Positions 37,269 through 45,298 of a stretch of 64,000 nucleotides of DNA are shown one piece after another. The translations under genes and the position numbers were made by a program. The notes under the pieces are model-generated. The model did no database searches, had not been told where the DNA came from, and worked only from the letters and a program-made list of their open reading frames with translations. How positions within the stretch are numbered: position 1 is the first letter of the stretch; the number at the start of each line of letters is the position of its first letter. This DNA is from an uncultured Pseudomonas sp. (GTDB lineage Bacteria > Pseudomonadota > Gammaproteobacteria > Pseudomonadales > Pseudomonadaceae), in NCBI RefSeq assembly GCF_946885955.1, contig NZ_CAMPHI010000014.1:1-64000 (forward strand). Direction: 5' to 3'.

Positions 37269-37296
37269 TTGTAGTCAAACTACAAAGAGCACTACA
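37269..37296. promoter_or_regulatory. Composite operator: TTGTAG-N5-CTACAA overlapping TGTAGT-N15-ACTACA
   Basis: TTGTAG-TCAAA-CTACAA is at 37269-37285. The same left half TGTAGT (37270-37275) also pairs with a third ACTACA at 37291-37296 across exactly 15 bases. That wider geometry recurs upstream of aceA (45272-45298). RpiR-family carbon regulators of Pseudomonas (RccR, HexR) bind TGTAGT- or TTGT-type palindromes, so a member of that family is the best guess; this is inference. Confidence 0.6.
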
Positions 37297-37405
37297 TCGG
37301 CATGCAGGCAAGACGCTTTCAGCCTAGCAGCTCAATCACCGATTGCCGGCAGCGCAATCGAACAACACAAAATACCGAGTTTGTTCGCCCTTTCAAGGAG
37401 TCAAC

Positions 37406-37846
37406 ATGCGTTTTACCCCCCATGTCACCGTCGCCACCATTGTCGAAGACCAGGGCCGCTTTCTACTGGTCGAAGAAATGGCTGACGGCCGCGCAGTATT
37501 TAATCAGCCTGCGGGCCACTTGGAAGCAGACGAAAGTCTCATGCAGGCAGCGTTACGTGAAACTCTCGAGGAAACCGGCTGGGATGTCGAGCTCACCGGC
37601 GTCACGGGCATTTACCTTTATACCGCCCCCAGCAATGGCGTCACCTACCAGCGCATATGCTTTGCCGCCAAAGCATTACGCCAACACCCGGACCTGGCAC
37701 TCGACGAAGGCATTATCGGTCCACGCTGGCTGAGTCGCGACGAGTTGGCCAGCCAACCGCAACGCTGGCGCAGCGAGCTGGTCTTGCGCTGCATCGATGA
37801 CTACCTGCAAGGCCCCCAGTTCCCCCTGGGCCTGATCCGCGACTAG
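37406..37846 (+). CDS. nudJ: Nudix hydrolase NudJ (phosphatase NudJ-like)
   Basis: This 146-residue Nudix protein carries the full box G-x5-E-x7-REUxEExGU at residues 37-60 (GHLEADESLMQAALRE then TLEETGW). E. coli NudJ hydrolyses thiamine pyrimidine pyrophosphate and other pyrophosphates. The gene order nudJ-mnmA-hflD-purB is conserved in gamma-proteobacteria. AAGGAG lies six bases before the ATG at 37406. Confidence 0.92.
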   Translation: MRFTPHVTVATIVEDQGRFLLVEEMADGRAVFNQPAGHLEADESLMQAALRETLEETGWDVELTGVTGIYLYTAPSNGVTYQRICFAAKALRQHPDLALDEGIIGPRWLSRDELASQPQRWRSELVLRCIDDYLQGPQFPLGLIRD

Positions 37847-37969
37847 CCCCTCTGTCGCACCGGCATGCACCCGGCAAGAAACCTGGCGATTTTGACCGCC
37901 CGGTTTCTCGCGGCAAGGCCACCAGCCCTGTTAGAATCGCCTCCTTTTCAGCCTATGCACATCGCCCCC

Positions 37970-39088
37970 ATGTCAGATCCAAGCACAACGCGCGTAATCG
38001 TCGGCATGTCCGGCGGCGTCGACTCCTCGGTATCCGCCCTGCTGTTGCTCGAACAGGGCTATCAGGTCGAGGGCCTGTTCATGAAGAACTGGGACGAAGA
38101 CGACGGCACCGAATACTGCACCGCCATGGACGACCTGGCCGACGCCCAGGCCGTGTGCGACAGGATTGGCATCAAACTGCACACCGCCAACTTCGCCGCC
38201 GAATACTGGGACAACGTGTTCGAGCATTTCCTGGCCGAATACAAGGCCGGGCGCACGCCCAACCCGGACATCCTCTGCAACCGCGAAATCAAGTTCAAAG
38301 CTTTCCTCGACTACGCCCTGATGCTCGGCGCCGACCTGATCGCCACCGGCCACTATGTGCGCCGTCGCGATATCGACGGCCGCACCGAGCTGCTCAAGGG
38401 CCTGGATCCGAACAAGGATCAGAGCTACTTCCTGCATGCCGTCGGCGGCGAGCAGATCGCCAAGACCCTGTTCCCGGTCGGCGAACTGGAGAAGCCGGCA
38501 GTGCGCGCCATCGCCGAGAAACATGAGCTGGCCACGGCGAAGAAGAAAGACTCGACCGGCATCTGCTTTATCGGCGAGCGCCGCTTCAGCGACTTCCTCA
38601 AGCAGTATCTGCCAGCCCAGCCTGGCGATATCGAAACCACCGAAGGCGAAGTGATCGGTCGCCACCATGGCCTGATGTATCACACCATTGGCCAGCGTCA
38701 GGGCCTGGGCATCGGCGGCCTGAAGGACGCCAGCGACGAACCCTGGTACGTGTTGCAGAAAGATCTGCAGCGCAACGTCCTGGTGGTCGGCCAGGGCAAC
38801 GATCATCCCTGGCTGTTCTCCAGCGCCCTGCTCGCCTCGGATATCTACTGGGTCAATCCGGTTGACCTGAGCAACCCGCGCCAGCTCACCGCCAAGGTGC
38901 GGTACCGCCAGGGCGACCAACAGTGCACCCTGGAGAAAACCGCCACGGGCTACCGCGCAAGCTTCGCCATGCCCCAGCGCGCGGTCACCCCGGGGCAATC
39001 GGTGGTGTTCTACGATGGCGAAATCTGTCTTGGCGGTGGCGTAATCGAAGTCGCCGAACCCTGGCGAATCAAGGACAAGCACCCATGA
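37970..39088 (+). CDS. mnmA: tRNA-specific 2-thiouridylase MnmA
   Basis: This 372-residue enzyme adenylates U34 of tRNA-Lys, -Glu and -Gln and inserts sulfur from TusE. The PP-loop SGGVDSS is at residues 14-20. The two catalytic cysteines lie in PDILCNREIKF (near 100) and STGICFIGERRF (near 198). Its sulfur donor system TusDCBE is in this window at 18.3-19.7 kb, and tRNA-Glu(TTC), a substrate, is at 71-146. Starts at 37955 and 37970 are both possible; 37970 fits the family N-terminus. Neither has a good ribosome site. Confidence 0.95.
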   Translation: MSDPSTTRVIVGMSGGVDSSVSALLLLEQGYQVEGLFMKNWDEDDGTEYCTAMDDLADAQAVCDRIGIKLHTANFAAEYWDNVFEHFLAEYKAGRTPNPDILCNREIKFKAFLDYALMLGADLIATGHYVRRRDIDGRTELLKGLDPNKDQSYFLHAVGGEQIAKTLFPVGELEKPAVRAIAEKHELATAKKKDSTGICFIGERRFSDFLKQYLPAQPGDIETTEGEVIGRHHGLMYHTIGQRQGLGIGGLKDASDEPWYVLQKDLQRNVLVVGQGNDHPWLFSSALLASDIYWVNPVDLSNPRQLTAKVRYRQGDQQCTLEKTATGYRASFAMPQRAVTPGQSVVFYDGEICLGGGVIEVAEPWRIKDKHP

Positions 39089-43685: not shown

Positions 43686-43784
43686 ACGCTTGCGCGTTTG
43701 AGACCGCTGCCGTCGTGTGCCGCGCAATAGCCAGCTATTCTGCTCGGCACGGCAACGCATCCCGACAGGCAGCGAGACACTGCA

Positions 43785-44426
43785 ATGAACGACGACAACG
43801 CCCCACCCGAAGCATCCGAGAGCGCCGAGCCCATCGAGCTGGCGGTCATCGAGTTCCAGTCACCGGGGCGTTTCGCGGTAAATAATCCCGATACGCCGAA
43901 CAACGACGCTACGCATGTGGAAGCGGCGCCCTTCGACCTCGGCAGCCATGTACAGCTGGAGCGTTTCGAGCACCCCGACGAAGCCCGTGCCCATGCGCTC
44001 GCCCTGCTGCAGCAAGCGCAACGCAGCCTGTGCATCTACAGCCACGACCTGGAACCCTGGCTCTATCACCGCGGCAGCGTGCAGCAAGCCTGCACCCGTT
44101 TCCTCCTCGCCAGCCCACGCAATCAGCTACGCATTCTGGTCAGGGACACCAGTCGCATGGTGAAGGAAGGCCACCGCCTGCTCAGTCTTTCCCGCCGCCT
44201 GCCAAGCAGCCTGCAGATCCGTAAATTCAACCCGGACTACCCCAACGAAGAACTGGCGTTCCTCCTCGCCGACGACTGCGGCTTGCTGCTGTTGCCGCAA
44301 CCGGGCCAGCTCAGCGGCTACGCGCTTTACCAGGATGCAGCTCGCGTGCGCACGCGGCGCACGCAATTCGACCAGGCTTGGGACACCAGCATCACCGACG
44401 CCGACTTACGGAGTTTCCTGCTATGA
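43785..44426 (+). CDS. Conserved hypothetical protein, PLD-like fold (DUF7931-type)
   Basis: This 213-residue protein has an acidic, low-complexity N-terminus (residues 1-50) and a compact domain from about 55. The pattern ARAHALALLQQAQRSLCIYSHDLEPWLY and ILVRDTSRMVKEGHRLLSL resembles half of a phospholipase D fold, but the HKD catalytic motif is absent (GHRLLSL stands where H-x-K would be). So binding rather than hydrolysis is likely. It overlaps the next gene by ATGA. The function is not known. Confidence 0.8.
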   Translation: MNDDNAPPEASESAEPIELAVIEFQSPGRFAVNNPDTPNNDATHVEAAPFDLGSHVQLERFEHPDEARAHALALLQQAQRSLCIYSHDLEPWLYHRGSVQQACTRFLLASPRNQLRILVRDTSRMVKEGHRLLSLSRRLPSSLQIRKFNPDYPNEELAFLLADDCGLLLLPQPGQLSGYALYQDAARVRTRRTQFDQAWDTSITDADLRSFLL

Positions 44427-45232
44427 CGTTTCGAATTCTGCTCGCAACCTTACTGCTCGGCTGCAGCTTGTCGCTCAGCGCGGCGACCGAGGTGCTGCCG
44501 CTCAACTACCGTACCGCCGATGAGGTACTGGCGCTGGTGCAGTCGGTACTGGGCAGCGAGGGCCGGGTCAATGCGTACGGCAATCAACTGATCGTCAATG
44601 CCCCGCCGGCGAAAATCGAGGAGGTTCGCACCCTGCTGGCGCAACTCGATACGCAACCGCGGCGCCTGTTGATCACCGTCGAAAGCGGCGAATCCAGCCA
44701 GCGCAGCGATAACGGCTACCGCGTCGATGGCAGCATCAGCGGTGGCGATGCCGAAGTGCAGATCGGCCGCGGTGAGGTCCAGGGCCGCGATCAGGTCCGC
44801 ATCATCAGGCGCAGTACCGACAGCCGCAGCGGCGGCACTCAGCAGGTTCAAGCCACCGAAGGCTATCCGGCGCTGATTCAGGTCGGCCAGAGCGTACCGC
44901 TCACCAGCTATGGCCGTGACGCCTATGGCCAGCCTTATAGCAACACCCAATACCGCAACGTGACCCGTGGTTTCTATGTCACCGCCAGCCTCAGCGGCGA
45001 GCGCGTGCATATCAGCATCAGCAGCAACCGCGACCGCTTGAGCCAGACCGACCCCGGCAGTATCGATATACAGAGCACCGACACCCGGGTCAGCGGCCGA
45101 CTCGGCGAGTGGATCGAGCTTGGCGGCGTCAGCGAACAAAGCCAGGGCGACAACGGCGGATTCATGCAGCACCGCTCGACCCAGGGGCGTGAAGATACGA
45201 GCCTGCGGGTCAAGGTCGAAGTAGTCGATTGA
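44423..45232 (+). CDS. Secreted protein with secretin N-type domain but no pore domain
   Basis: This 269-residue protein has a signal peptide (residues 1-20, MTFRILLATLLLGCSLSLSA) and a secretin N0/N1-like domain at about 22-85, with LNYRTADEVLALVQSVLG and NQLIVNAPPAKIEEVRTLLAQLD. That is the short ring-building domain of type II/III secretion and pilus secretins. The rest (GFYVTASLSGERVHISISS and onward) resembles only the start of a secretin core and lacks a full beta-barrel or gate. It is coupled by ATGA to the preceding unknown gene. The Cys at residue 14 is inside the hydrophobic core rather than a good lipobox, so I call it periplasmic. Confidence 0.83.
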   Translation: MTFRILLATLLLGCSLSLSAATEVLPLNYRTADEVLALVQSVLGSEGRVNAYGNQLIVNAPPAKIEEVRTLLAQLDTQPRRLLITVESGESSQRSDNGYRVDGSISGGDAEVQIGRGEVQGRDQVRIIRRSTDSRSGGTQQVQATEGYPALIQVGQSVPLTSYGRDAYGQPYSNTQYRNVTRGFYVTASLSGERVHISISSNRDRLSQTDPGSIDIQSTDTRVSGRLGEWIELGGVSEQSQGDNGGFMQHRSTQGREDTSLRVKVEVVD

Positions 45233-45271
45233 GCGGTCCGGAGCTGACTCATCGGTCGCCAAAAAAATTTA

Positions 45272-45298
45272 TGTAGTAGTCATCCAAAAAGCACTACA
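45272..45298. promoter_or_regulatory. Operator-like element upstream of aceA (TGTAGT-N15-ACTACA)
   Basis: TGTAGT (45272-45277) and ACTACA (45293-45298) are separated by 15 bases. The same hexamers with the same spacing occur upstream of icd (37270-37296), and both spacers end in AGC directly before ACTACA. It lies six bases upstream of the putative -35 box. RccR is known to control aceA in Pseudomonas, so this is the natural candidate site; assignment is inferred. Confidence 0.62.

What the first reader, a model, noticed from the sequence alone, without database searches (positions are those of the whole stretch)
37269..45298. icd and aceA share the same operator geometry (TGTAGT-N15-ACTACA)
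Upstream of icd (37270-37296) and upstream of aceA (45272-45298) the same two hexamers occur with exactly 15 bases between them, and both spacers end in AGC. icd and aceA compete for isocitrate. One regulator reading both sites would set the TCA/glyoxylate branch in a single step. RccR, an RpiR-family carbon regulator of Pseudomonas, is known to act on aceA; a matching site at icd would extend its logic to the competing enzyme. The shared geometry is seen; the regulator is inferred.
Basis: partly seen in the sequence, partly recalled or inferred. Interest (0 to 1): 0.75.

Follow-up and report, generated by a model that had tools for sequence, protein, structure and literature searches.

The report
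Shared carbon-switch sites at icd, aceA

Summary
In detail: TGTAGT-N15-ACTACA occurs exactly twice in the window, before icd and before aceA, none expected by chance. The icd element is three half-sites: a 15-bp RccR-type site (TGTAGT-N3-ACTACA, the aceE class) nested in the long class (N14/N15, the aceA class), as at rccR itself. A second 15-bp site, 93 bp nearer icd, fills the spacer between a conserved -35 and -10. Both recur in idh-less Pseudomonas and Halopseudomonas. Their spacing varies almost only by whole helical turns (92-94, 103-105, 113-114; outliers 96 and 154), while operator-to-start distance drifts freely: the mark of two operators bound together. Monomeric idh is in 0 of 61 genomes with the icd operator; in a genus sample, 6 of 6 idh-less genomes carry it and 0 of 93 idh-bearing ones show it. 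RccR is in 60 of the 61, a HexR-type protein in 10. icd is not among the eight ChIP-seq targets in SBW25. Best reading: KDPG-free RccR represses icd with aceEF and frees aceA; KDPG reverses both. Binding, looping and sign are inferred, not shown.

The parts
35830..37086 (-). icd, dimeric NADP-dependent isocitrate dehydrogenase
   Evidence: NCBIfam PRK07006 and TIGR00183 over cut-off
37172..37177 (-). predicted icd -10 (AAAAAT)
   Evidence: AA[CGA]AAT in 60 of 61 non-redundant loci
37177..37191 (.). proximal 15-bp RccR-type operator, in the spacer of the icd promoter
   Evidence: one mismatch to TGTAGT-N3-ACTACA; conserved block
37195..37200 (-). predicted icd -35 (GTGACT), 17 bp from the -10
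   Evidence: GTGAC[TA] in 60 of 61 non-redundant loci
37270..37284 (.). distal 15-bp RccR-type operator (perfect), core of the composite site
37270..37296 (.). composite site: long pair TGTAGT-N15-ACTACA around the 15-bp core; third half-site CACTACA at 37290-37296
   Evidence: TGTAG[TC]G third half-site in 50 of 56 non-redundant loci
37406..37846 (+). divergent Nudix hydrolase gene
   Evidence: weak Nudix family matches below curated cut-offs
45272..45298 (.). long RccR-type site before aceA
   Evidence: same place as the mapped P. aeruginosa aceA site, about 450 nt before the start codon (PMC6922535, passage)
45305..45333 (+). predicted aceA leader promoter TTGACG-N17-CATCAT
   Evidence: TTGAC invariant in 15 aligned aceA leaders
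45350..45594 (+). SrbA small RNA homologue in the aceA leader
   Evidence: Rfam RF02872, 124.7 bits, gathering 69
45737..47332 (+). aceA, isocitrate lyase, 531 aa
   Evidence: NCBIfam PRK06498; start codon read

Best explanation
The icd promoter of many idh-less pseudomonads is an RccR-controlled promoter. RccR without KDPG binds two 15-bp operators on the same face of the DNA, one between the -35 and -10, and holds icd down together with aceEF. KDPG weakens the 15-bp register and favours the long register, so RccR leaves the promoter operator (it may stay on the outer pair of the distal element) and shuts the long sites of aceA and its like. One ligand then sets the two enzymes that compete for isocitrate in opposite directions. 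Lineages in which a second dehydrogenase (idh) stands beside icd have another icd promoter without these operators. Shown here: the sites, their conservation, phasing, place in the predicted promoter, and exclusion with idh. From the literature: the RccR site classes and their response to KDPG. Inferred: binding of RccR at icd, looping, and the sign.
For: Exact 15-bp sites number 2-4 per genome in six genomes, control 0; they lie at rccR, aceE, icd and one ICL/PEPM gene. Proximal operator in 61 of 398 family genomes, all 61 upstream of icd. Conserved block with -35 and -10 around the operator in 60 of 61 non-redundant loci. Spacing coherence at 10.4 bp 0.90 against 0.07 for operator-to-start distance, n = 58. 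RccR in 60 of 61, with the recognition stretch and KDPG residues kept in the seven proteins compared. aceE has the same paired 15-bp layout, 52 bp apart, in six of six genomes, and aceE pair binding is reported as apparently cooperative with bending (PMC5489143).
Against: No binding or expression data at icd. icd is not among eight SBW25 ChIP-seq targets (glycerol and pyruvate media; SBW25's own icd promoter was not read here). The distal site also offers a KDPG-favoured long register, so the net sign could differ. In P. aeruginosa on acetate the isocitrate dehydrogenases carry about two thirds of the branch flux and most NADPH supply (PMC7078475, passages), so strong repression of a sole ICD on acetate would be costly. 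Operators are not universal in idh-less genomes: of 18 further loci without idh close by, 8 have none. The kinship-corrected sign test of operator against idh is only p 0.0625.
Confidence: 0.64

Rival explanations
1. RccR controls icd mainly through the long register, in the same direction as aceA: KDPG-bound RccR represses both genes and the 15-bp core is secondary.
For: The outer pair is kept at N14/N15. Of 18 further loci without idh close by, 7 keep a long pair while the proximal site and the core have decayed.
Against: Most carriers keep two 15-bp sites in helical phase, one inside the promoter; the 15-bp class is released by KDPG in vitro (PMC5489143).
Confidence: 0.13
2. RccR binds at icd but activates it or has a small structural effect, with no real repression.
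For: Nothing tested here; ICD is needed on all carbon sources, and P. aeruginosa expresses ICD, IDH and ICL together on acetate (PMC7078475, passage).
Against: The proximal operator fills the predicted spacer between -35 and -10, a place typical of repressor sites (inference).
Confidence: 0.1
3. The sites serve the divergent Nudix gene, not icd.
For: The distal site lies about 110 bp before the Nudix start.
Against: The proximal operator is embedded in a conserved block on the icd side. The Nudix gene is also present in idh-bearing loci, where no site was found before icd.
Confidence: 0.04
4. HexR reads both sites.
For: HexR is a close paralogue and binds KDPG (PMC5489143).
Against: Box not met (TTGT-N9-ACAA instead of N7-8); no HexR-type protein found in 51 of 61 genomes with the operator.
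Confidence: 0.02
5. The likeness is chance, without function.
For: The N15 string alone is no commoner than its control in five genomes.
Against: Zero expected in the window; conserved islands in much less conserved DNA; spacing kept near whole turns.
Confidence: 0.03

Closest known systems
RccR-aceE promoter (P. fluorescens SBW25; PMC5489143)
   Same: Two 15-bp sites; pair spacing near whole turns (52 bp at aceE in six of six genomes, 92-114 bp at icd in most)
   Different: At icd the distal member is a three-half-site composite and the spacing is longer
rccR autoregulatory site (PMC5489143)
   Same: 15-bp site nested in a long pair; N14 in five of six rccR loci read
   Different: icd has a second operator inside its promoter; no second site with at most two mismatches was seen in the stretch scanned around six rccR loci
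RccR-aceA site (PMC5489143, PMC6922535)
   Same: Long pair of N14/N15; in the window both are N15 ending in AGC
   Different: aceA has no 15-bp core in the window; long linker drifts independently at the two genes
AceK control of ICD
   Same: Also acts on ICD at the isocitrate fork
   Different: Post-translational; aceK is in 31 of 32 genomes with and without the operator

Membership tests
RccR regulon | TGTAGT/ACTACA half-sites 3 bp apart (15-bp class) or about 14 bp apart (28-bp class) | tested here: met
   37270-37284 perfect N3; 37177-37191 N3 with one mismatch; 37270-37296 N15
RccR regulon | rccR present in the same genome | tested here: inconclusive
   No genome is held for the window; among 61 relatives' genomes with the operator, 60 have an RccR-type protein
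RccR regulon | site at the core promoter of the target | tested here: met
   operator between conserved -35 and -10 in 60 of 61 non-redundant loci; promoter predicted, start not mapped
RccR regulon | RccR binds the site in vitro or in vivo | not testable with these tools
   needs gel shift, footprint or ChIP
RccR regulon | expression changes in an rccR mutant, with KDPG response | not testable with these tools
   needs transcripts in an idh-less species
HexR regulon | TTGT-N7-8-ACAA box | tested here: not met
   both icd sites read TTGT-N9-ACAA (sequence; consensus from passage)
HexR regulon | HexR present where the site is present | tested here: not met
   HexR-type second protein in 10 of 61 genomes

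The most novel reading that the evidence does not exclude
RccR is a two-register, single-ligand switch of the isocitrate fork: KDPG-free RccR bridges two helically phased operators over the icd promoter while freeing aceA, and KDPG reverses both at once. This wiring is absent wherever a second isocitrate dehydrogenase sits beside icd, so studies of idh-bearing model pseudomonads saw only half of the circuit.
Probability: 0.42. Interest if true: 0.76.

Novelty: new variant of a known kind. Interest (0 to 1): 0.62.

Why it matters
[quoted passage not shown] Here a transcription factor is predicted to set both competing enzymes, in opposite directions, from one metabolite. Natural spacing variants at icd offer a way into why RccR's two site classes answer oppositely to KDPG, which Campilongo et al. 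call unclear (PMC5489143, passage). The exclusion with idh is a concrete case of a gene's presence going with a rewired regulon, and would explain why icd was not reported from idh-bearing species.

Tried and rejected
AceK as the difference between the groups: aceK is in 31 of 32 genomes of both kinds. Missing KDPG supply: edd is over its cut-off in 59 of 61 operator-bearing genomes (not in G115 and G121). Exact N15 as the conserved feature: rejected. A plasmid search with the icd upstream stretch found nothing. Remnants of the operators between idh and the Nudix gene in nine idh-bearing loci: sequences printed and looked at by eye, none noticed, no formal scan.

Limits of the counts. The 61 genomes were chosen by the proximal pattern, so only the 99-genome genus sample and the 80 loci (best matches to this ICD) bear on how often idh goes with its absence. 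For the 93 idh-bearing genus genomes, the operator pattern had no hit genome-wide (at most one mismatch; the same pattern missed the true site of G032), and the 650 bp before idh held no short or long site with at most one mismatch in any of the 93; that stretch reached icd in 78 of 93, not in 15. Of the 80 loci, 54 have an idh-sized ORF (722-843 aa) by icd and 0 of 54 show a site in 500 bp; of 20 others (L004, L028, L029, L034, L036, L053, L061-L074) 18 show at least one short or long site at the limits (none in L064, L068); six outgroup loci (L075-L080) show none. Eight neighbour ORFs were scanned: six from the idh-type loci are idh, L064 and L078 are not; the other 48 rest on size and place, some with genome-wide checks. 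The tree uses 72 of 81 rows; its site label includes weak cases (L036, L071, L074), and L078-L080 were labelled idh-less without a genome search. In one search, absence of idh was judged within 1.5 kb only. Before the non-redundant counts I dropped 20 rows of repeated genomes and L146, which the script had misread; one search shows L146 has both operators 103 bp apart. Two rows (L189, L205) were added by hand, and its random-draw p-values ignore kinship and the 154-bp row.
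Full report
What is there. TGTAGT-N15-ACTACA occurs twice in the window, at 37270-37296 before icd and at 45272-45298 before aceA, with none in 100 shuffles. icd (35830-37086, minus strand) and aceA (45737-47332, plus strand) are confirmed by family models and by reading the starts. A second 15-bp palindrome with one mismatch lies at 37177-37191.

What the literature says. Campilongo et al. (PMC5489143; I read the abstract, the ChIP-seq results section, part 1 of the Discussion, and search passages) describe two RccR site classes with the same half-sites: 15 bp (aceE, rccR), whose affinity falls with KDPG, and 28 bp (aceA and others), where for aceA it rises with KDPG. 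At aceE two 15-bp sites show apparent cooperativity and signs of DNA bending. rccR has a 15-bp site inside a degenerate 28-bp one. Their eight ChIP-seq targets, from glycerol and pyruvate media, do not include icd. PMC6922535 (passages) gives the long consensus ATGTAG-X14-CACTACAT, that is TGTAGT-N14-ACTACA, and places the P. aeruginosa aceA site about 55 nt before the transcript start. PMC10810197 (abstract, one results section, and a search with zero hits for icd and idh) reports aceE, aceF, aceA and glcB. Searches for RccR with Pseudomonas (43 papers, 40 listed) and RccR with isocitrate dehydrogenase (8 papers) showed no title or abstract start that proposes icd as a target; supplementary tables could not be read and most subscription papers are not in that library.

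Conservation. Among 80 icd loci, sites in the 500 bp before icd were found only in loci where the Nudix gene lies about 280-410 bp from icd (757 bp in L074), and in none of the 54 where an idh-sized gene stands between. Six of those 54 genes were scanned and all six are monomeric isocitrate dehydrogenase. An exact form of the proximal operator is in 61 of 398 Pseudomonadaceae genomes, in all 61 upstream of icd, and idh is in 0 of these 61. In an even sample of 99 genus members idh is in 93. The operator pattern found 5 of the 6 idh-less genomes and 0 of the 93 others; reading the sixth showed both operators there too. Reading 650 bp before idh in the 93 found no short or long site with at most one mismatch; the stretch reached icd in 78 of 93. 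Six of six against 0 of 93 has a nominal Fisher probability of 9e-10, which ignores kinship. On a tree of MnmA plus PurB both traits change 8 times on the best tree; in 7 independent pairs they never go the same way (on average 5.4 opposite, 1.6 no difference), median sign-test p 0.0625, range 0.031-0.125. There the window is a sister of two idh-bearing rows and L004 (operators) of L002 (idh), so the stretch has probably been exchanged repeatedly. Lack of idh does not guarantee operators: of 18 further loci without idh close by, mostly from small genomes, 2 have both operators, 7 keep only the long pair, 1 has a weak proximal site and 8 have none.

Anatomy of the icd promoter. In 61 non-redundant loci (window included; not the same set as the 61 genomes) the proximal operator lies in a block AAAAGTGCGTGACTTTCTGTAGRAAAACTACAANAAT, most positions at close to full information, with much less conserved sequence on both sides. 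GTGAC[TA] and AA[CGA]AAT, 17 bp apart, stand at -35 and -10 distance in 60 of 61 and the operator fills the spacer. The exception is L074 (Balneatrix alpica), which has a perfect 15-bp site 95 bp before icd.

Phasing. In 76 of 86 rows (repeated genomes included) both operators are within one mismatch; spacings are 92 (2), 93 (6), 94 (33), 103 (12), 104 (13), 105 (1), 113 (5), 114 (4). Two loci read later have 96 and 154, and L146 has 103. With the 96 and 154 rows included (58 non-redundant rows) phase coherence at 10.4 bp is 0.90 for operator spacing and 0.07 for operator-to-start distance. The spacing classes need 6 changes on the best icd tree. The aceE pair is 52 bp apart in six of six genomes, near five turns (aceE and glnE on either side confirmed). 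I read this as selection for both operators on one face of the DNA, most simply because RccR bound at one touches RccR at the other.

Third half-site. The outer half-site lies 11 or 12 bp from the core (N14 or N15 for the outer pair) and reads TGTAG[TC]G in 50 of 56 non-redundant rows. The same layout stands before rccR in five of six genomes read. Where the core has decayed in small genomes the outer pair survives in several, so the long register is probably used.

Regulator. RccR-type proteins are in 60 of the 61 operator-bearing genomes (none found in G121) and a HexR-type second protein in 10. RccR of G002 matches PDB chains 8k3b and 8ju9 over its length (I take these to be the RccR structures of PMC10810197 but did not check the codes there). 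The three KDPG residues named in that abstract and the stretch SEPTIVRFCRAIGC, which I take for the recognition helix, are kept in the seven proteins compared. edd, which makes KDPG, is over cut-off in 59 of 61.

Mechanism. From the published behaviour of 15-bp sites I expect icd to follow aceEF: repressed by KDPG-free RccR on acetate, when aceA is free, and released by KDPG on sugars, when the long sites close. Repression must be partial, since in P. aeruginosa on acetate about two thirds of the branch flux passes the isocitrate dehydrogenases, the main NADPH source (PMC7078475, passages). The distal element may let RccR change register as KDPG rises; that step is inference.

Verdict. Real sites; regulator very likely RccR; sign and looping unproven. 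New, as far as my searches reach, are icd as a target, the phased two-operator promoter, and the exclusion with idh. The site classes and the KDPG logic are known.

Noticed in passing
window 45272-45594: The aceA leader holds the SrbA small RNA (RF02872), which starts about 17 nt after the predicted -10 behind the RccR-type aceA site; so RccR and KDPG may control SrbA as well. Two SrbA papers mention RccR nowhere in the main text (passages); one reports no polar effect of srbA deletion on aceA.
   Followed up: partly
L103 1501-1540; L104 1476-1515: In G002 and G106 two 15-bp RccR-type sites 25 bp apart stand before a gene of the isocitrate lyase/PEP mutase family (about 290 aa, below the prpB cut-off): a possible further RccR target.
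   Followed up: partly
L196, L197, L199-L202, L204, L071, L072, upstream of icd: Relatives with small genomes keep only the long N14 pair before icd; the proximal site and the 15-bp core have decayed.
   Followed up: partly
L001-L080, between icd and the Nudix gene: This gap behaves like a two-allele locus: either idh with another icd promoter, or a short RccR-type operator region, switching several times on the tree.
   Followed up: partly
L178 (G275:C1:760092): A further RccR-like site away from icd (TGTAGTAAAACTACAAGAAT) in one genome of the family sample.
   Followed up: no
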